In this document: in pieces, positions 3,186 through 13,563 of the stretch
How positions within the stretch are numbered: position 1 is the first letter of the stretch
How the letters are laid out: each line of letters opens with the position of its first letter
Source of the DNA: Candidatus Obscuribacterales bacterium
Lineage (GTDB): Bacteria; Cyanobacteriota; Vampirovibrionia; Obscuribacterales; Obscuribacteraceae
Direction: 5' to 3'
Length of the DNA: 64,000 nucleotides
NCBI GenBank assembly: GCA_020050685.1
Contig: JAGVKG010000008.1
Span: 1-64,000, forward strand
The notes under the pieces: model-generated
The model's input: the letters and a program-made list of their open reading frames with translations, nothing else
The model's database searches: none
What the model was told of the DNA's origin: nothing
Position numbers and translations under genes: made by a program

Positions 3186-3386
3186 AGCAAACCTCCGGTT
3201 GGTGCAAAGATGATTCTCGCAAAAATCTAGACGATAATTTTACCCGAAATGCTCACCGTTCTGCATAATATATGGCTATCGGACACTGGAAACACACAGG
3301 CGGATAATAACGCCACCATTAGTGGTATCACTTTTCAGGATCAAAAAATGTGGCCATGCCAATCAAATGTCAACCGTCCGAACGGA

Positions 3387-3600
3387 CACTTCCAGCCACC
3401 GAGAGAAGTGTTTACCGAATTGCGCCTTGCCGTACCATATGACTGGTGGCTAATTGCTCCAACAAAGTGGTGCAGCACGGTGTTGCATTTAGCCATGCGC
3501 GAGAGCATATTGAGTCCGAGCGAGGCTTGTCCGATGAAGTTGTCGAAGAGAAGGAGAAGCGAAATTCCCAGCATGTTTTCGGCATCGGCGGCGGTGCCTG
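3387..3600 (-). pseudogene. Broken duplicate of an internal Rhs segment
   Basis: About 210 bases are clearly homologous to positions about 10317-10530 inside the large Rhs gene, roughly its residues 438-508. The shared protein stretch includes FDNFIGQASLGL, MLSRMA and YGTARRNS. The frame has stop codons just outside the homologous block on the upstream side, no start site is visible, and the similarity ends abruptly on both sides. It is therefore a non-functional fragment. Several substitutions separate the two copies, so the duplication is not recent. Flanking sequence (3600-4112) shows no credible gene. Confidence 0.75.
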
Positions 3601-4112
3601 GCGGTCTTCATCAAACGGTACTGAACCAATATCGAATGCCACCGTATATGGTGCTGAATGGTTTAAAAAAGTAGACTGAGGTGAGCTCTCATAAGACTCA
3701 TTCCTCTCGCCTAACGCAAACATTACACTAAAGTCCGCGTCCTAAGTGTCTCACTTATTATTGGCACAGAGGGCAGTAACAATCAGCGCGGAAAGACGAC
3801 TGAGCCAGAGAGACAAAGCGACGCTCACTCACTTGTATCAAGCATATCCGCGCAGCCGCCACTACATTATAGAAGCCCCTACTGTTACAGAGGAAAGAAC
3901 TCCAGATGCGGCTACAATCAAGCACAAGATTTTTGATACGAGATCACGTTATTTGGTGGGTATCTAGAACAAAGAAAAGATAGATAGCCAGAACCGCATC
4001 ACAACCCGCCTGGTGCCGCACGATTTCCGTTTGCTAGGTGTGATCAAATGATTTTGCAAAAACAAAGTTTCCTGCAAATCACGCTGCCTATCGATCCTTG
4101 GCGGACTCACTG

Positions 4113-5423
4113 CTAGTATAGACTTCTAGCGTCTTTGAGCTTGTTGTTTTGGCCAATACTGTGCCATGTATCAATTGCCCAATCACGGAGGTTCTCGTCC
4201 TCGAAAGCAATTGTAAATGTAGCATAGTTGCGATCTGCGGCTGCCATTCCGTGGAGCATCCAATATTGTCCAGTTTCATCTTCTGTATACTTTAGGAAAG
4301 CCTTAGATTGTACTTTATCATTTTTGTGTTCTAGTGGCATTGGCTCACAGATCTTCTGATACTTTGCAAACCGCTTTCTTAAAGGCGTTTTAAAAAAATG
4401 TGTGTCCCTATACGGTGTTAGACGAAAGTTTCGGTGCAAATTGTCGTACCCTAAAAAAGTGGTGCGGTCGTTTTCTGTGTCATGACAAAATGATCCTGGA
4501 AGTATCACGTGCCACCCAAGAGGAAGATTTACCTGTGCGCGGTAGCGTCTATAACCTATTGGTTCACGCTTCATATGTTGGGCTGCTCTGCGCTGCGTTG
4601 TTTCTAATAACTCTCCATTTATTTCAAGTAGTTGCAATATTTCTCCCCACTCTTCCCAGGGCAAGCGTAAAGCAGGATCTAGTTGGTGAGCTGTCTGTAA
4701 TTGTCTAGAAACGTTATTCAGAAGATCGGTCTCATCGTCAACAATTGGTTTTCGCCAGCGGACCTCGTTCCACATATTAGTTAGCGCGTGGCCCAAATGA
4801 TATGAAGCTCCGAATCCAGGTTCCCACCACGGACAAATATCGATATTATCTAATTCTCGTGAGGCAATGGCCTCTAACCAGGCGCTGTGCCGCGGACCCA
4901 GTTGTGTAAGCAAAGAGTGTTGCAAATCTGGATAGAAAGAGTCTGAAGGCATGCATATTGCATTGCCGGCTCCTTTTGATTCACTGTTTAATATATCCTG
5001 AGCCAGTTCTCCGAACCAGTTGATGAAGCTCAGATTGAGAAGCGATAGATCCTGTGTCTGAAAATATTTTGTTTGATCTGCTTGTTGGCTTGCAATCCAG
5101 GAAATATCAAGATCCTTTCCTAATTGTATTATGAGGTCGCAAAGATAAGCGTGATAACCAGGGCCGGCCGCAGAGGTTCGTGCTCTAATGTGTACACAAT
5201 CTCCGCGATCGATAGAGAATTTGACTGACTCCGCACCGGGATGCAAATCAAGCCAGGAAGCAACCATCGCGGAAGATGAATTCAAATCAGAATCAGTCAC
5301 CTTTGGTGAAATTATAGCGGAATGATCTGCGAACCAAGAGTTTGTTTCGGCGAGCAGTTTTATTCGATCCGCCCCACTGATGCGCTTTCTTAGAGTGCCC
5401 TTTATATCAAGCTTTATTGCCAT
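4113..5423 (-). CDS. 436-aa orphan downstream of Rhs; candidate immunity protein
   Basis: A 436-residue protein, Trp-rich and rather acidic, with no signal peptide or membrane segment. The N-terminal half alternates beta-like stretches (ESVKFSIDRGDCVHIRART); the middle is helical around LPWEEWGEILQLLEINGELL. No family was recognised. It is the first gene downstream of, and on the same strand as, the Rhs toxin gene, with a 264-base spacer containing a hairpin. Rhs immunity genes normally sit exactly there, so cognate immunity is plausible by context, although it is larger than most immunity proteins. The ATG at 5423 has no strong Shine-Dalgarno sequence. An alternative is an unrelated cytoplasmic protein. 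Confidence 0.7.
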   Translation of the reverse strand: MAIKLDIKGTLRKRISGADRIKLLAETNSWFADHSAIISPKVTDSDLNSSSAMVASWLDLHPGAESVKFSIDRGDCVHIRARTSAAGPGYHAYLCDLIIQLGKDLDISWIASQQADQTKYFQTQDLSLLNLSFINWFGELAQDILNSESKGAGNAICMPSDSFYPDLQHSLLTQLGPRHSAWLEAIASRELDNIDICPWWEPGFGASYHLGHALTNMWNEVRWRKPIVDDETDLLNNVSRQLQTAHQLDPALRLPWEEWGEILQLLEINGELLETTQRRAAQHMKREPIGYRRYRAQVNLPLGWHVILPGSFCHDTENDRTTFLGYDNLHRNFRLTPYRDTHFFKTPLRKRFAKYQKICEPMPLEHKNDKVQSKAFLKYTEDETGQYWMLHGMAAADRNYATFTIAFEDENLRDWAIDTWHSIGQNNKLKDARSLY

Positions 5424-5642
5424 TGGCTGATTCCCATAACCTCAACACCCCGATGTTACATCGTTTGATTTGTGTATGTAAACCCCAAGAGTCATATAAT
5501 GAAAAGCGTTTCTAAATGCTGGCGCAAGCTGGAAGTCTAGCCTAGCAAATTTTATTTTTGTATCTGTGGCCGGTGTATTTGCGATCTCATATATCCACGC
5601 TTTCCATGGTAGTTGTATCTATATCCTGTTACTAAAGGAGGC

Positions 5643-5676
5643 GGTACGCACAGGCTTATCATCGCATGTGCGTACC
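5643..5676 (-). terminator. Hairpin between Rhs gene and downstream orphan
   Basis: A perfect 9-bp stem (GGTACGCAC/GTGCGTACC) with a 16-base loop lies 12 bases past the Rhs stop codon. On the minus strand it is followed by CGCCTCCTTTAG, with no long T run, so termination may be partial and the downstream orphan may be co-transcribed. Confidence 0.5.
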
Positions 5677-5687
5677 TTTATCTCAAC

Positions 5688-8600
5688 TTATATCCTTGGA
5701 AGACGCTGATACGTGTTTACAAAGATATCGCCGACTTTCTTTCCTACCGCCTCCATTTTCTGTGCATAGTTGGCAACCTGTCTTATTCCTCTCACGATTT
5801 GTAAGAGAGAGTCAGGCTTAACCTCTATGATATGTCCTTCGAGCAAATGATACCAGTCAATTCTTAGGCGTGTTTCCGGAATCGGGAAATTCTTTTTCCA
5901 ATTGGGATCATTTGGATCTGGGGACAGATTGTGCTGCTCACGCCCATACTGAGCATAGCGGTTATTACCGCTCGTGGAAGATTTAGCCCACAGGATGCGA
6001 TCACTACTCACAGAGGACGCGGGCGCGGACTGATTTTGATAGCTAGGCGTTGGCAGGGCTTGAGGTGCGGCCTTCGGGAGCAGAGCAGCCATTTGATTGG
6101 CCACTATGTTGTCGATGAGTGTCTTCTGGGCTATGGCCACTATCTGAAGTGGAGACAATCCAGATGATGACATTGCCCCATGCAACACAATTCCGGTTGC
6201 GATGGCGCCACCGACAATGGCTGCGCCCAAGAGTACTGGACCAGCTCCTATGCTAGCTCCTCCTATGACGGTACCTACCAGGATGTCAGTCGCAGCAGCC
6301 GCTTCGAAGAGTTCGGTGATGGCGATAGCACCACTGAGAAGTATTTCAGGACCGAGCCCGAGTGGATCGCTGGCGTTCACCGGATCGCTTCCGCAGTACT
6401 CGTACAAGTTCAGTCCGCCTTTGTAGCCGATGGGATCGGGTTGGAGGAAGCGGCCGAGCTTGGGTGAGTAGTGGCGAGCTTTGTAGAAGTAGACTTCTAC
6501 TTCCGGCTCGTAGAACTGCCCGGTGAAGCCGACTGATATATCGGACAAGGAACCGGAAGTTAGTTCTCCCCAGGGCGAATACACGTTGCGATTAATCGGC
6601 GTGCCGGTCTGATCGGTGGTTAACACTGTGGAACCGGTTTCGTCTGCGTGCAGGTAAGTGACGTCTTCTGTCGCGGCATCAACCACGAACAAACATTCGT
6701 CAAGTCCTGCGCCCCAAACGTAGCGTTTCAACAAAGCACCAGTGTTTCCGTTGTATTCTTCAATCCGTTGCATGCCGGAATAGAGATAACGGGTTTTGTT
6801 TGAACCGATGGTTTTCAGCGTTAAGCGGCCGAAAGGATCGTACTTGAAACTGACGGTGCCACCAGGGGTGGTGACAGACACGAGCCTATTTGCATGGTCA
6901 TAGGCGTAGGTGTTTGTGCCGTCGTCCGTGAGGCAGCCGTTGTCGTCATAGATGAAATCGTCGTTTTCGACAGATGGATACTGGTTCAAGTTATTGGCTT
7001 GCCCGTATTGGGTAGTGTGCATTTCTTCCACATTCGGTTGCCAGAGGAAGGCATCATCGTTGCAGGATTTGCTCACAGTTTGTCCGATGTCGCTGATTCC
7101 ATACGCGAGTTCAATTCGCGGCGGGGTGCCAAGCGACACATTTGGTTTCAAGCCACCGATTATCATTGAATGAAGATTGTCCACGCGGTCGAACCAGTAG
7201 CCTTGACCGGTGCCGTTGCCGTTTGATTGCGACGTGCGCCGTGAAGCGGAGTCGTAAGCAAAAGAAACAGAGGCACTGAAACCGGAAATAGAAGTAACTC
7301 TATCCAGTTCGTCGAAGGTATTGGTGATGGTCGAGGCATCAGGATATTTCAACTGCAAGACATTGCCGTTGTCATCCATAGAAGATATCTCAACTACCTT
7401 GACCTCTGCTTCGCGTTCATACCGTTCCTTGACCATGCGCCCGGCGCTATCGTAGAACATTTGGAATGTTCCAGTGGAAGGATCGCCTGAGACAACAGGC
7501 GTGGATACGCTAATGGTTCTGCTGGCAAGGTCGTAGCTAAAACTTACCGTCGGTTGCCCGTATGGAGTTTTGCTTTCGAGCCTGCTGAGAACATCGTATT
7601 CAAACGTGTACACAAGTCCAGCACGCGTGGTTGCCGTGAGAACATTGTCGCGCACGTCAAAGGTAACTTCTTCCGTTGTGGAATCCGGATAAGTTACCAC
7701 CACCGAACGATCAAAACCATCGTAGTCATATTCGGTCATGTTGTCCTCAGCATCAGTGACCGAGGCAACTTTGCCGTTGTCTGTGTACGTTATCGATTGC
7801 CGAGTGACACCATTGATCGCACTTGACACCGGTCTTGATATTGCATCGAAGACAGTGGTGGCAACATTGCCCAGTGGATCGGTCACCGACTTTACTCTCC
7901 GCATCTCGTCGTATTCGTAACGGACTGGAATCGGCTGGCTTGCCTGTCCGAAGTTAACAGGTCCTGTAACCGTGAGCACCTTGCCATCAATGGCATAGGT
8001 TTTTGTGGTTGCTTGAGTGTTCGGATCGGTGGAGGCGAGGCTGCGAGTTTCGATAACGTTGCCGTTGTCATCATAAGTGATGTAAGCCACCTGATTGAAC
8101 GGCGTCGGTCCGGTTACTTGCGTAACCCAACGGTTGGCATTGTATGCCGCCGTCGAAACGTTGCCGTTCGGGTCGGTGGTGGTGAGGACGTTGCCGACAT
8201 CGTCGAAAGTAAACGAAGTGGCTATGTCCAGACCGTTAGGATTTTCCGTAGCATCATATGGGTCCACGATAGTGGACATCAGATTATGCGTTGGGTTCTC
8301 GCCGGTTGAGTCATAGCTGTTTTCGGTTACAAGCCAGACTTCATCTTCCGGGGTTTCATCCTCCACAACCTTAACAGCAGTTCTCGTCACTTGACCAATG
8401 CTGTTGTATTCAACAATGGTGGTTGGAGTGCCCTCAGCAACTTCTTCGAGGGTGATCTGAGTGACCTTACTGGTGGTGGCATCAAATGTTTTAGTTGTCA
8501 CCTTGCCGGCAGGGTCTGTTATTTCATCCGGTTGACTTGGCCAGTTAGTGTCCCCGTAAGCAAACGAGGTGGTTCTGTCAGAAAGTCCGGAGCCGGGTTT

Positions 8601-11600
8601 GGCGTGTTGCGTTACCGAAAGTACACTGCCGGCGGCATTGTACACAGTCGATACGCTATTTCCTTCGGGCATGGTCACAAGAATCGGGCGCTCATTGCCG
8701 TCGTATTCGGTTGTTACCGATTGACCAAGAGCATTGATTGTGCGAATGGCGCTTCCTCTTTTGTTGAAGTAGAGGATGCGGCTTGTGCCTTCGGTGGCGG
8801 GAGCAACTGCCGGTGCAACTTCTTCGGAACGAGAGCCTGCCAGAAAGAACTGCCAGACGTTTCCGTAGGCATCTTCTTGTTCTTTCACCCGCGAGAGACT
8901 GTCATATACATTTGTGACAATCGGGTCGTTAGGGTTGGCGGATTTCTTGATCACGGTCATTCTGCCACGCTGATCATATTCGTAGTGAGTGTTGCTCACG
9001 GGAAGAGGATCGCTGACAGCAGTGAGGTTGCCGGTGTTGTAGTCGATGGTGAGTTGAACTTGGCGACCATTACCGTCATCAATCGTGGAGAGTTGATTGT
9101 AGAGGTCGTATTCGAAGTTAAGCTCGCGGAAGCCGTTGGTGACTCTCACAAGCCTGTTGTTCACGCCCTCGTATTCAACATCGATTGTCACACCGAAAGG
9201 ATAAGCGATCGATGTAAGCAATCCATCCGGATTATACGTGTGCACCACTTTCTCGGCGGTAGTGAATTTCCAGTGGCTGTCTTCCTCTGGATCTTCGACA
9301 ATCCATTCAAGAAGCGATGCTGCATGCATACCCATGGGAGGCAGATAGCTGTCGTCATGCATTTTGGTGAAGACAGCGAAGCCGCCACCAAATTGCAAGC
9401 GTACAACATTGTCTACCAGCCGTGCTGCCAGGAAGTCCTGGACGATGCAGGCGGTGACGATGTTTTCAATCGGCCAATCATCGTTTTGATCAAGTTGCAT
9501 CGCGAGAGCGCGAGTGACGAACAAAGCGACGATTGCAGGGACTGCGGCAAGCACTTGTTGGTCGCCGAGGGCAATGAAGCCGTCACTATTTTCAGAGGCC
9601 TTCATCTGCCAATTGTGACACCAGCCGAAGCCCATATCCTGGAAGGTCAATCGCAGAGCAGAGTTGTAGCTGCGAGTGAACGACAGTTCATACGGAGCAC
9701 CCTGATTGCCGACGGTCATGTCCGTGCTTGAGTATTCGTACCGGCCATTTAGCATGTTGACGCGGGCGGACTCATATGCGGTGACGGAAGGCGCACCGAA
9801 GCCGTTGACTTGGCGAGCGTTGTCGGCAGCGGCCCCATTGGTGCCGGCTTCGTCTTGATCGCCCGTGGAAACGGAGCCTTTGGCGCCGAACCATGTTTGA
9901 CCGATGGTCGTGGAGTCGGAACCGGAAGGGCCGAATGCCAGGTAGCCGTAGAAGTCGGTGGTATCACCGATGGTGATATTGGAATCTGCGGGCATTGCAA
10001 CACGCCATGCAGGAGAGCCGTTGATGAAGATATCTTCGATTGAATCGAGGACAGCAGAGTCATATCCGGCGGTTTCCATGATGCCGCGAACATCGGTGCC
10101 TGTGTCCCAGTTTGACGCATCAGCGTTATATATCGGAACACGGTCACCAGTTTGTTCATCAATCACCTTCAAGTTGGCGACTTTAACCGCCTTGATGATA
10201 TCGGCAGCTTCAACTCCGCTTACTTGTTGGTGAGCGGCACTTTCCAGTATTTGGAAGAACATGGAGGATGTGACACCGACGGATCTGGTATCAGTGGTGT
10301 CATCCAACGGTGAAACATTCCAGCCACCAAGGAAAGTGTTGATGGAGTTGCGTCTTGCGGTGCCATATGTCTGGTGACTTATCACGCCGACGAAGTGGTG
10401 CATTGCGGAGTTGCAGTGCGCCATGCGTGAGAGCATATCCAGACCGAGCGAAGCTTGTCCGATGAAGTTGTCGAAGACAAGGAGAAGCGAAATTCCCAAC
10501 ATGTTTTCGGCATCGGCGGCGGTGCCTGCGGCAACCGCTTCGTTCTGAACAAGCTGGTGAACTGCTGCCATGTCTTTGGAAGACACGCCCCAAGCATTGC
10601 CGATGATGGTCTGCCCGCCTGTGCGGATCGGCACATGTTGCACGGCATCGGCAAAGTCATCAGCATACGGATGACCGATCGTGATGATCAGGTCCTCATA
10701 GTCACCGGCAGTCATTTGTCCCGATGGACCGTCCACGACTTCACCATCGAGATACAAGCTTGCCATTCGGTCTTCATCAAACCAGAGTGTCATGCGCTTG
10801 GAATAAATATCGCTGGAGAAGAATCCCATGTCTATTCTATAGTGCGTACCGGTCCAGTCGTATTGCACAAGCATGACTGCTTTGCTTTTGTCCGGAATGG
10901 CGTCAACTACGGATGGAGTGGTGCCTTGATCTTCGTAGGCAAGTTCGGTGTCACGCACCGCATCTTCGCCGACAATGGAAACAATTGATCGCCCACCTAA
11001 AACCTCATTCATACTCGCGCCAGGCATGTTGTCCTGGATGTGATCAATTAGGTTGTTGCAGTAGGCGGTCAGATTGCTTGTGATGTTGGCATCATGGATG
11101 TTCTGAGCATAATCGGTGTTATATGTAGCACCGGACTTAGCATCATCCAGGAAGTCGGATATGTCATTGTTCTCCCCTAATATGGCATCTTCCAGGTTGG
11201 TGATGCCTGCGGTGCTGGCGTATTGTTTGAATGACGGGTCAAAAACATATTGTGTTTGACCAATCGTTGCTTGTACCCAGCAATGTTCAAGCTTGATCTT
11301 GCCGGTTTGCGTGTCTATGGTGTGGCCGATGCCGCCGTTTGCCAGTAGTTGGCTGGCAATGGTGATGGCAGTTTGTTCTTGCAGGTCAATTCCGAGCCAG
11401 TTGGACCATTGTTCGTCTTCCAGATCGATCAAGCCAATCACGAAGTTTGCCGTGTAACCGGATTCTCGCAAAAGCCTGACCATGAGATCGGACTGATCAA
11501 ACGAGTTACCGGAGCCGTCGATCATGGCACCGAGTCCTCCCTTGTGCAGTCCGTAGGTTGGCAGGAATTCAATTTGGTCGTGGACAAATTCGTAGATGAG

Positions 11601-11843
11601 ATCCACGCTGTTCTTGAGAGCACGCGCTTGTTCGATGATGCGATCATCTTCTGGCGGTTCAGATTCAGGATCTTCGGGATCTTCAGGAGCCGGCTCATAC
11701 ATGTTGCTTGGCAGTGTCCTGCCGTTGCGATATGTTTGAGCGTTGGTCGGAGTGACGGCGGATTGCTGCGGTAGCATGCCGAATTTTGTTGGGTCGAATT
11801 GACTTGATGGTGTTGGTGAAAGACGTTTCTTCTTTCTCTTCAT
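5688..11843 (-). CDS. Large Rhs/YD-repeat polymorphic toxin, nuclease-like tip
   Basis: This 2051-residue protein starts after AAGGAG at an MKRKKKR N-terminus and has no signal peptide. In order it shows: a transglutaminase-like domain (about residues 75-215; His in LEHCWVQA and Asp in FDPSFK kept, but the nucleophile region reads GSGNSFDQS without Cys); a long unique head; a DUF6531-type entry domain (FTRSYNSALR); many YD repeats (about 850-1700); and the Rhs core ending in YKGGLNLYEY...DPLGLG at about 1830. After the core come hydrophobic segments (about 1833-1890) and a C-terminal tip. The tip has Asp1996 and E2007-V-K2009, matching a PD-(D/E)XK-like nuclease arrangement, followed by RGIRQVANYAQK. 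By family knowledge, the YD shell encloses the toxin tip and releases it. The target and delivery route are unknown, and no secretion-system genes are nearby. Confidence 0.92.
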   Translation of the reverse strand: MKRKKKRLSPTPSSQFDPTKFGMLPQQSAVTPTNAQTYRNGRTLPSNMYEPAPEDPEDPESEPPEDDRIIEQARALKNSVDLIYEFVHDQIEFLPTYGLHKGGLGAMIDGSGNSFDQSDLMVRLLRESGYTANFVIGLIDLEDEQWSNWLGIDLQEQTAITIASQLLANGGIGHTIDTQTGKIKLEHCWVQATIGQTQYVFDPSFKQYASTAGITNLEDAILGENNDISDFLDDAKSGATYNTDYAQNIHDANITSNLTAYCNNLIDHIQDNMPGASMNEVLGGRSIVSIVGEDAVRDTELAYEDQGTTPSVVDAIPDKSKAVMLVQYDWTGTHYRIDMGFFSSDIYSKRMTLWFDEDRMASLYLDGEVVDGPSGQMTAGDYEDLIITIGHPYADDFADAVQHVPIRTGGQTIIGNAWGVSSKDMAAVHQLVQNEAVAAGTAADAENMLGISLLLVFDNFIGQASLGLDMLSRMAHCNSAMHHFVGVISHQTYGTARRNSINTFLGGWNVSPLDDTTDTRSVGVTSSMFFQILESAAHQQVSGVEAADIIKAVKVANLKVIDEQTGDRVPIYNADASNWDTGTDVRGIMETAGYDSAVLDSIEDIFINGSPAWRVAMPADSNITIGDTTDFYGYLAFGPSGSDSTTIGQTWFGAKGSVSTGDQDEAGTNGAAADNARQVNGFGAPSVTAYESARVNMLNGRYEYSSTDMTVGNQGAPYELSFTRSYNSALRLTFQDMGFGWCHNWQMKASENSDGFIALGDQQVLAAVPAIVALFVTRALAMQLDQNDDWPIENIVTACIVQDFLAARLVDNVVRLQFGGGFAVFTKMHDDSYLPPMGMHAASLLEWIVEDPEEDSHWKFTTAEKVVHTYNPDGLLTSIAYPFGVTIDVEYEGVNNRLVRVTNGFRELNFEYDLYNQLSTIDDGNGRQVQLTIDYNTGNLTAVSDPLPVSNTHYEYDQRGRMTVIKKSANPNDPIVTNVYDSLSRVKEQEDAYGNVWQFFLAGSRSEEVAPAVAPATEGTSRILYFNKRGSAIRTINALGQSVTTEYDGNERPILVTMPEGNSVSTVYNAAGSVLSVTQHAKPGSGLSDRTTSFAYGDTNWPSQPDEITDPAGKVTTKTFDATTSKVTQITLEEVAEGTPTTIVEYNSIGQVTRTAVKVVEDETPEDEVWLVTENSYDSTGENPTHNLMSTIVDPYDATENPNGLDIATSFTFDDVGNVLTTTDPNGNVSTAAYNANRWVTQVTGPTPFNQVAYITYDDNGNVIETRSLASTDPNTQATTKTYAIDGKVLTVTGPVNFGQASQPIPVRYEYDEMRRVKSVTDPLGNVATTVFDAISRPVSSAINGVTRQSITYTDNGKVASVTDAEDNMTEYDYDGFDRSVVVTYPDSTTEEVTFDVRDNVLTATTRAGLVYTFEYDVLSRLESKTPYGQPTVSFSYDLASRTISVSTPVVSGDPSTGTFQMFYDSAGRMVKERYEREAEVKVVEISSMDDNGNVLQLKYPDASTITNTFDELDRVTSISGFSASVSFAYDSASRRTSQSNGNGTGQGYWFDRVDNLHSMIIGGLKPNVSLGTPPRIELAYGISDIGQTVSKSCNDDAFLWQPNVEEMHTTQYGQANNLNQYPSVENDDFIYDDNGCLTDDGTNTYAYDHANRLVSVTTPGGTVSFKYDPFGRLTLKTIGSNKTRYLYSGMQRIEEYNGNTGALLKRYVWGAGLDECLFVVDAATEDVTYLHADETGSTVLTTDQTGTPINRNVYSPWGELTSGSLSDISVGFTGQFYEPEVEVYFYKARHYSPKLGRFLQPDPIGYKGGLNLYEYCGSDPVNASDPLGLGPEILLSGAIAITELFEAAAATDILVGTVIGGASIGAGPVLLGAAIVGGAIATGIVLHGAMSSSGLSPLQIVAIAQKTLIDNIVANQMAALLPKAAPQALPTPSYQNQSAPASSVSSDRILWAKSSTSGNNRYAQYGREQHNLSPDPNDPNWKKNFPIPETRLRIDWYHLLEGHIIEVKPDSLLQIVRGIRQVANYAQKMEAVGKKVGDIFVNTYQRLPRI

Positions 11844-11964: not shown

Positions 11965-13563
11965 TTACGGCATGAAGCTGATCTTGGACCAGGCGGTGTT
12001 GGCCTGCATGCTGTCAGAATTCACCCCGCCGGTGCAGATGGCGTTGGAGTTTTGGCCGCAGGCGTAGAGATTTCCAAGGTCAGTTAGAATGAACCATCTT
12101 TGTGTGGTGGATGTTCCGTGCACGAAAACATCGGTGATGCTTTCCCGCCCATCAATGATGGCCCGCGGTGTCGGGATGTACTTGTATGCGCCGGGAGTGA
12201 CCGAATTGTCGATCCCGATTTGACCATTACTTTCACCACAGTAGGCAAGTATGCCCGAAGTGGTCTGAATGATCATTTGTGCATTCGTCGATAGATTATT
12301 TCCTTTCGGGAAGAATATCTTCGATGCAGCACCCGGTGTATAAGTAGCTTGCGCGGGAGTGGTTACGGACATTGTTGTTGAGTTCTGAAATAAATTATTT
12401 TTATTCCCATAGCCCCAAGTTTTCAGCGTGCCCGAATTGTCGATCGCGTACCCATATCCGTTAAAACCGCCACCAAGCTCCGCCGTCACGATATTGCTCA
12501 GCGCGGTTACTTGAGTGAAGTAGTTGCGATCATTAGTGTCACCTAGTCCGAGAACGCCTTTCGCTCCAGAGCCGACAGTCCACACATCACCTGCGGAATC
12601 AACCACGAGTGCGTTTCCTGCATTGGCGGCGCTATAACCGGCATTAGCGGAAATTGCTGTTACGCCCGTCATATTTGTGCTTGAACCCGTCTTGGCATTG
12701 ACGAATCCACCGGTAACGTTGCTAGCGTTACCTCGCGCTAACTGGCCTTGCCCATTAAAGCCGGCCACGAGAAGCTCGTTATTATCGATGAGCATGTAGC
12801 AGCTAAAGTACGTACCTGAGCAGGCGATGGCTACATCGGTGACGTAATTTGTAGTGTACGGGACGCCGTTGCAAAGCACCGGAGTGTTCTGGTCCGTAGT
12901 GGGATTTGTCGAATTGCCAAGATTCCCAGCTGCGTTCGCACCACAGGCGTACATGCGCTTGTTTGTAGCCTGGAAGTAAACACATCCGGATCCGTTGGTC
13001 GTACCGTAGCCGCCGCAAGCCCAGACCTTTTCTATGGCTATGCTGTTGGTGACGAAATACTCGATGCGCTTAAGTTGATTGCGAGCGACTGTATCACCAT
13101 GTCCGAGCGCGCCATAGCTTCCTATGCCGGCCGAATAAATCCAGTTGTTGTCGAACACAATGTACAAGGCGCCATTCGTCATGGCCCAGTCGATAATTTC
13201 GGCATCGTCCGGGGGCAGGGTGCTATTGGGATCGAAGGTCACCTCTTGCACAATCGCGGTTGTGCTGGTGGCAACCCCATTCGCCAAAACTCCGATTGTG
13301 TTTGAGCCCCATCCCACGATCTTTTTGTTGCTGAGCAAAACCAGCATCTGATTATTCTTTAGATCGCCCTGTTGCCGTTTCGGCAGTTGGGCAACCGTGG
13401 GAATTTCCGGAACGGGCGGATCTAATGATGGCGGAAATTCAACGACCGTTTGTCTGTTTCCGTTTTGATCATAATTATAGGTGACGTGCGAGCCGTCCGT
13501 GTAGCTTATTTCCACAAGGCGGCCAAACTCGTCGTATTTTGCTGTTGCCGTTTTTCTAGCCAT
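11965..13563 (-). CDS. YD-repeat head fused to RCC1-type beta-propeller
   Basis: This 532-residue protein starts at ATG 13563 after GAGGAAA. The first about 40 residues are YD repeats (KYDEFGRLVEIS, TYNYDQNGNR). A Pro-rich linker (PPSLDPPVPEIP) follows, then about seven RCC1-like blades of about 60 residues with typical Gly pairs (VGWGSNTIGVLANG, IGSYGALGHGD, VGSGAKGVLGLGD, YACGQNSN). RCC1 propellers are protein- or nucleotide-exchange-binding scaffolds in eukaryotes and common of unknown function in bacteria. There is no signal peptide. It lies immediately upstream of the giant Rhs gene on the same strand, 121 bases apart, so the two are probably co-expressed. An adaptor, chaperone or partner role is inferred from the shared YD module only. 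Confidence 0.85.
   Translation of the reverse strand: MARKTATAKYDEFGRLVEISYTDGSHVTYNYDQNGNRQTVVEFPPSLDPPVPEIPTVAQLPKRQQGDLKNNQMLVLLSNKKIVGWGSNTIGVLANGVATSTTAIVQEVTFDPNSTLPPDDAEIIDWAMTNGALYIVFDNNWIYSAGIGSYGALGHGDTVARNQLKRIEYFVTNSIAIEKVWACGGYGTTNGSGCVYFQATNKRMYACGANAAGNLGNSTNPTTDQNTPVLCNGVPYTTNYVTDVAIACSGTYFSCYMLIDNNELLVAGFNGQGQLARGNASNVTGGFVNAKTGSSTNMTGVTAISANAGYSAANAGNALVVDSAGDVWTVGSGAKGVLGLGDTNDRNYFTQVTALSNIVTAELGGGFNGYGYAIDNSGTLKTWGYGNKNNLFQNSTTMSVTTPAQATYTPGAASKIFFPKGNNLSTNAQMIIQTTSGILAYCGESNGQIGIDNSVTPGAYKYIPTPRAIIDGRESITDVFVHGTSTTQRWFILTDLGNLYACGQNSNAICTGGVNSDSMQANTAWSKISFMP

What the first reader, a model, noticed from the sequence alone, without database searches (positions are those of the whole stretch)
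4113..11843. Rhs protein with PD-(D/E)XK-like tip and a large unknown neighbour in the immunity position
The last about 90 residues after the hydrophobic linker show D1996...E2007-V-K2009 plus RGIRQVANYAQK, a restriction-endonuclease-like arrangement. The next gene encodes a 436-residue Trp-rich orphan, unusually big for an immunity protein. No T6SS or other delivery genes are near, so export of a 2051-residue protein without a signal peptide is unexplained.
Basis: partly seen in the sequence, partly recalled or inferred. Interest (0 to 1): 0.65.

Follow-up and report, generated by a model that had tools for sequence, protein, structure and literature searches.

The report
Rhs nuclease toxin with split partner
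A predicted bacterial toxin protein that carries a DNA-cutting tip is really there; the large neighbouring gene is only a tentative antidote, and the unexpected part is a small partner gene, holding a single copy of the toxin shell's repeat, that sits just before nearly every relative of this toxin.

Summary
The 2051-aa Rhs protein (5688-11843, -) has D1996 and E2007-V-K2009 where stated, and its tip passes Pfam's cut-off for Tox-REase-9 (31.9 bits against 27.3). The host is a Candidatus Obscuribacterales genome. No T6SS or phage/eCIS sheath gene and no WXG100 gene was found in it.

The immunity reading of the 436-aa gene is only partly supported. For: it is the next gene, and like the tip it has low G+C (lowest GC3 of 86 own-genome ORFs); the next gene of a sister Rhs locus looks similar. 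Against: relatives in 14 other genomes all lie away from Rhs genes, 11 of the loci near pyrG. Its C-terminal part models as a Mog1/PsbP/DcrB-type fold, shared by Tsi3 and Eag chaperones.

The main new point lies upstream. Gene 11965-13563 is one YD repeat joined to an RCC1 propeller. In the same family, 51 of 54 such Rhs genes are directly preceded by an ORF with a single YD repeat, alone or fused to an RCC1 propeller or a tail-fibre/CBM module. It is under purifying selection, and signal peptides co-vary with the Rhs partner. I found no description of it in the open-access library. Role inferred: docking or lid subunit of the Rhs shell.

The parts
5688..11843 (-). Rhs polymorphic toxin, 2051 aa
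   Evidence: Transglut_core, DUF6531, RHS_repeat x10, Rhs_assc_core, Tox-REase-9
11244..11642 (-). Transglutaminase-like N-terminal domain (residues 68-200), nucleophile Cys position S114, His187 and Asp202 kept: probably inactive
   Evidence: Pfam PF01841; expected Cys not seen in 32 aligned relatives while His and Asp are invariant; positions
6354..6581 (-). Rhs-associated core with DPLGL end (residues 1755-1830), expected site of aspartyl self-cleavage
   Evidence: TIGR03696, 83.6 bits; DPLGL at 1826-1830; cleavage itself from established knowledge of Rhs proteins
5712..5954 (-). Tox-REase-9 toxin tip (residues 1964-2044)
   Evidence: PF15650 over cut-off; GC3 0.471 against about 0.57 in the core
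4113..5423 (-). 436-aa protein in the immunity position; candidate immunity protein, unproven
   Evidence: ORF; relatives in 14 other genomes away from Rhs; lowest GC3 of 86 ORFs; model pLDDT 78.7 with Mog1/PsbP/DcrB-like matches
11965..13563 (-). Upstream partner: one YD repeat (residues about 6-43) plus RCC1-type beta-propeller, 532 aa
   Evidence: PF05593 at residues 10-40 and RCC1 repeats; model matches UVR8/RCC1 propellers; same gene upstream of Rhs at own contigs C4 and C68 and in three other genomes
3386..3601 (-). Relic of a second Rhs gene (matches residues 440-508 of the Rhs protein, about 85% identical)
   Evidence: tblastn and blastn

Best explanation
This is a polymorphic Rhs toxin locus of a Candidatus Obscuribacterales bacterium. 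The large gene encodes an inactive transglutaminase-like domain, an Rhs (YD-repeat) shell, a core expected to cut itself, and a Tox-REase-9 nuclease tip that would be held in the shell and act on nucleic acid of a target cell. It works with the gene just upstream, which supplies one separate YD repeat. I propose that this lone repeat docks onto the Rhs shell in trans and carries a lid or binding module: here an RCC1 propeller, in relatives a tail-fibre/carbohydrate-binding module or nothing. The 436-aa gene downstream is the best available immunity candidate, probably recruited from an Obscuribacterales protein family that otherwise sits elsewhere. Shown: domains, gene order, conservation, selection, composition. 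Inferred: nuclease activity, docking, lid role, immunity, target, export route.
For: Tip: Tox-REase-9 over cut-off. Domains and inactive transglutaminase; PMC3482391 describes such inactive transglutaminase domains in Rhs toxins. Partner: a one-YD-repeat ORF lies upstream, same strand, of 51 of 54 such Rhs genes in the family, against none in 355 kb of control DNA. 18 of 31 Rhs loci outside the order also have it. pN/pS median 0.12 in 26 close pairs. Signal peptides go together: 17 pairs both, 46 neither, 9 discordant, Fisher p 3e-9. Fusions to RCC1, CBM5/12 plus collagen, and tail-fibre modules. Polymorphic tips: none of the other complete tips matches this one. Cassette composition. The 436-aa protein lies on a very long branch of its family tree (4.44 against a median of 0.087).
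Against: No contact between the YD partner and the shell has been shown. The signal-peptide test uses a simple heuristic and is not corrected for phylogeny. 13 of 31 Rhs loci outside the order lack the small partner. The 436-aa family is found away from Rhs in every other genome that has it, and the gene lies 264 bp from the tip. No signal peptide, and none of the three delivery-system markers searched, was found here. Nine other tips tested had no Pfam toxin match, so many family members may not be recognisable nuclease toxins.
Confidence: 0.55

Rival explanations
1. The 436-aa gene is an unrelated neighbour, a member of a housekeeping-like Obscuribacterales family that moved next to the Rhs locus, and the tip has no dedicated antidote here.
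For: All relatives in 14 other genomes lie away from Rhs genes, 11 of the 15 inspected loci near pyrG. The own pyrG locus lacks the gene, so this may be the displaced copy. 264-bp gap.
Against: Lowest GC3 of 86 ORFs, in step with the tip; similar pattern in the sister locus. Very long branch. No other convincing candidate antidote ORF between the tip and the gene.
Confidence: 0.5
2. The 436-aa protein is a chaperone or loading factor for the Rhs protein rather than an antidote.
For: Its C-terminal part models close to the Mog1/PsbP/DcrB fold shared by the Eag chaperones SciW and EagT6 and by the immunity protein Tsi3.
Against: Fold matches are partial (TM about 0.4-0.6 to targets, low identity). 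Relatives are not next to Rhs genes. No T6SS sheath was found in the genome. No sequence match to any solved structure.
Confidence: 0.08
3. The single-YD ORF upstream is a leftover of an ancestral longer Rhs gene or a leader peptide that only tunes translation.
For: Many copies are only about 40-60 aa and lie close to the Rhs start.
Against: Purifying selection on the peptide sequence. Presence across phyla. Signal peptides matched to the partner. C-terminal fusions to large binding modules, which a leader peptide would not need.
Confidence: 0.2
4. The Rhs protein is a cell-surface or structural protein and the nuclease-like tip is not delivered as a toxin.
For: No signal peptide and none of three delivery-system markers. 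Many tips in the family end in Gly/Pro-rich stretches, and nine tips had no Pfam toxin match.
Against: This tip keeps the family's D and ExK residues. Tips are hypervariable behind a conserved core.
Confidence: 0.2

Closest known systems
Polymorphic Rhs toxins with an inactive N-terminal transglutaminase domain (Zhang et al. 2012, PMC3482391)
   Same: Inactive transglutaminase-like domain, then RHS repeats, then a variable C-terminal toxin tip
   Different: The paper says these domains always follow a signal peptide or TM helix; this copy and most Obscuribacterales copies have none. The paper's section on these domains does not mention an upstream one-YD-repeat partner gene.
Tox-REase-9 toxin family (PF15650)
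   Same: Match over the curated cut-off; GxxxH, D and ExKP kept
   Different: YxxE element not exact (YAQKME). The published immunity partner is Imm54, whereas the 436-aa protein has no Pfam match. No second member was found in the relatives and phylum samples searched.
TcB/TcC toxin cocoons and their beta-propeller gate; T6SS RhsA plug (PMC8765631)
   Same: Rhs shell with self-cleaved tip, closed at the N-terminal end by a separate module; a beta-propeller is the gate in Tc toxins
   Different: Here the propeller is a separate protein, RCC1-type, with its own single YD repeat; the domain scans of these genes showed no PAAR or SpvB domain
Mog1/PsbP/DcrB-fold proteins including Tsi3 and Eag chaperones
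   Same: Predicted fold of the C-terminal part of the 436-aa protein
   Different: No sequence similarity found; longer, 436-aa protein, seen only in Obscuribacterales in these searches

Membership tests
Rhs polymorphic toxin | Array of RHS/YD repeats | tested here: met
   PF05593, 161 bits, 10 stretches
Rhs polymorphic toxin | Rhs-associated core with conserved end before the tip | tested here: met
   TIGR03696 83.6 bits, DPLGL 1826-1830
Rhs polymorphic toxin | Variable C-terminal tip behind a conserved core | tested here: met
   Sister gene on C4 is 56% identical over 1-1830 with a different tip; no other family tip matches
Rhs polymorphic toxin | Immunity gene next to the tip | tested here: inconclusive
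   436-aa gene in position with matching composition, but its family lies elsewhere in other genomes
Rhs polymorphic toxin | Export by a known route | tested here: inconclusive
   No signal peptide; no VipB, sheath or WXG100; other routes not searched
Tox-REase-9 (PF15650) | Profile match over the curated cut-off | tested here: met
   31.9 against 27.3 bits for the tip alone; the whole protein scores 25.8, below it
Tox-REase-9 (PF15650) | Motif GxxxH, E, D, ELKP, YxxE | tested here: inconclusive
   G-REQ-H 1967-1971, D1996, EVKP 2007-2010 present; YxxE only approximate
Tox-REase-9 (PF15650) | Nuclease activity | not testable with these tools
   Needs an assay
Imm54 immunity proteins | Profile match of the neighbour gene | tested here: not met
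   436-aa protein has no Pfam family at E <= 1
Tc toxin (TcB/TcC) | SpvB domain and integrin-like propeller in one chain, with TcA genes nearby | tested here: not met
   Pfam scan of the three genes shows no SpvB or integrin-like propeller; only a partial TcdB_toxin_midN match below its cut-off (22.8 against 24.8 bits). TcA was not searched for.

The most novel reading that the evidence does not exclude
A widespread class of Rhs toxins is a two-protein machine: a separately encoded protein with exactly one YD repeat completes or caps the Rhs shell in trans, and by carrying exchangeable modules (RCC1 propeller, carbohydrate-binding tail fibre) decides what the toxin particle binds. That would be a modular targeting system for Rhs toxins that needs no T6SS.
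Probability: 0.4. Interest if true: 0.75.

Novelty: new variant of a known kind. Interest (0 to 1): 0.5.

Why it matters
How Rhs toxins outside T6SS and Tc complexes are built, targeted and released is an open question. A conserved partner that is a single repeat of the shell itself gives a concrete, testable handle: does it dock, and does its module set the target? It also shows that a known tip family (Tox-REase-9) and a candidate antidote of unusual size occur in a little-studied cyanobacterial sister group.

Tried and rejected
A scan of genome contigs with the 436-aa protein found nothing. The tip has no relative in plasmids, phages or PDB sequences. My first regular-expression search for the upstream YD ORF was too strict and missed nearly all of them; a profile search replaced it. 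I guessed an Ntox44 tip for the sister Rhs on C4; Pfam gave no match, so the guess is dropped. Searches failed on coordinates. Promoter and terminator scans around the gap gave no more sites than expected by chance. Several apparent mismatches in the signal-peptide table (L120, L125, L126, L118) look like errors of the heuristic but were left as counted.

Full report
What was checked. The residues named in the tip are right: D1996, E2007, K2009 and RGIRQVANYAQK. The window is part of contig C10 of a 4.2 Mb genome. Its relatives, by record titles, are Candidatus Obscuribacterales / Melainabacteria.

The Rhs protein. Pfam and NCBIfam find a transglutaminase-like domain (68-200), DUF6531 (695-754), ten RHS repeat stretches, and an Rhs-associated core (1755-1830) ending in DPLGL. 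The tip matches Tox-REase-9: tip alone 31.9 bits, cut-off 27.3; inside the whole protein 25.8. In an alignment of 32 family members the His and Asp of the transglutaminase triad are invariant, but I see no Cys at the expected nucleophile position in any. This fits the 'inactive transglutaminase' class of PMC3482391. That paper says the domain always follows a signal peptide or TM helix, which is not so here. It gives the Tox-REase-9 motif as GxxxH, E, D, ELKP, YxxE and Imm54 as its immunity protein. Here GxxxH, D and EVKP are present; YxxE is approximate. No other Tox-REase-9 was found in the relatives or phylum samples.

The 436-aa gene. It has no Pfam, NCBIfam or PHROGs match. Besides the own genome, relatives occur in 14 of 193 genomes searched, all in the same family (its tally of 15 includes the own genome). 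In the 15 loci inspected (L025-L039) no ORF resembles the Rhs protein; 11 sit near pyrG and most of these also near a HAD-type gene. The own genome has only this copy, and its pyrG locus on C11 lacks one. Against dismissing it: GC3 is 0.400, the lowest of 86 own-genome ORFs sampled; the tip has 0.471 and the Rhs core about 0.57. The sister Rhs locus on C4 shows a similar step (core 0.539, tip 0.480, next gene 0.419). Its branch in the family tree is very long. An AlphaFold2 model from 14 sequences (mean pLDDT 78.7) matches Mog1/PsbP/DcrB-type structures, among them the immunity protein Tsi3 and the Eag chaperones SciW and EagT6, at modest scores. I infer from the strand order that these matches lie in the C-terminal third; Foldseek did not print query ranges. 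I put immunity at about 0.4 and an unrelated neighbour at about 0.5.

Delivery. None of the three markers searched was found in the own genome: VipB for T6SS, phage-type sheath for eCIS, WXG100 for T7SS. Other routes were not searched. The Rhs protein starts MKRKKKRLSPTPSS and has no signal peptide.

The upstream partner. The gene 11965-13563 has one YD repeat at residues 10-40 and then an RCC1-type propeller. Its model shows strands over residues 6-43, a low-confidence linker, then a propeller closest to UVR8 and RCC1. The same gene precedes the related Rhs genes on C4 and C68 of the same genome and in genomes G004, G021 and G025. A search with the Rhs N-terminal region found such Rhs genes in 31 of 50 genomes of the family. 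I fetched most of the loci and searched up to 2.6 kb upstream of each with a profile of the YD repeat. 51 of 54 have an ORF with a single YD repeat, same strand, mostly 40-130 aa; one of the three misses shows a partial repeat. Control DNA of 355 kb from the same family gave none. A named-genome scan shows the same in Proteobacteria and others: 18 of 31 Rhs loci outside the order have it, 13 do not.

Evidence that the small ORF is a working protein. In 26 close pairs the median pN/pS is 0.12. Outside Obscuribacterales both partners usually have a Sec signal peptide; inside the order usually neither has. Counted by a simple heuristic: 17 both, 46 neither, 9 discordant, Fisher p 3e-9, without correction for phylogeny. 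Within genome G035, both members of one pair (L118) have a visible signal peptide (the heuristic missed the one on the Rhs side, seen), while four other pairs (L074, L075, L119, L129) have none on either side. Some copies are fused at the C-terminus to other modules: RCC1 propeller, collagen plus CBM5/12, or tail-fibre-like sequence.

Mechanism. In known Rhs structures the shell is closed at its N-terminal end by a plug, or by a beta-propeller in Tc toxins (PMC8765631). By analogy I propose that the lone YD repeat docks on or into the shell and holds a lid or binding module. This is inference; no contact was tested. The literature searches that bear on it and the sections read did not show a description of this arrangement, but the library is open-access only and hit lists were not read in full.

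Verdict. The toxin is a new member of a known kind. The in-trans single-YD partner makes the locus a new variant. The immunity claim stays open.

Noticed in passing
window 11965-13563; loci L040, L042, L070-L081, L115-L153: One-YD-repeat ORF upstream of 51 of 54 transglutaminase-Rhs genes in the family; also in Proteobacteria with signal peptides
   Followed up: yes
window 3386-3601 (-): Relic of another Rhs N-terminal region, about 85% identical to residues 440-508, downstream of the 436-aa gene
   Followed up: partly
L115, L119-L121, L125, L126, L132, L133, L137, L138, L140-L143: Many single-YD ORFs share an N-terminal extension like APFIWGSLQDASGMQFVYQGAPFLVVNQPP; its role is unknown
   Followed up: no
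L074-L081, L115-L118, L123, L130, L134: Many standalone single-YD proteins end in a conserved Cys motif (TTCxxGxC), which could form a disulphide
   Followed up: no
L079:1-4305 (-): Several tandem ORFs of about 240 aa with similar ends lie downstream of the Rhs gene, looking like an array of immunity genes
   Followed up: no
L070:1386-4687 (+): Two YD-RCC1 genes in tandem before one Rhs gene in genome G004
   Followed up: no
G000:C20, L041:6204-18665 (-): A further Rhs protein of the same genome without a match to the transglutaminase part, preceded by a 2125-aa protein and not by a single-YD ORF
   Followed up: no
L204, L212, L223: Outside the order some single-YD repeats sit in longer upstream proteins; their other domains were not identified
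   Followed up: no
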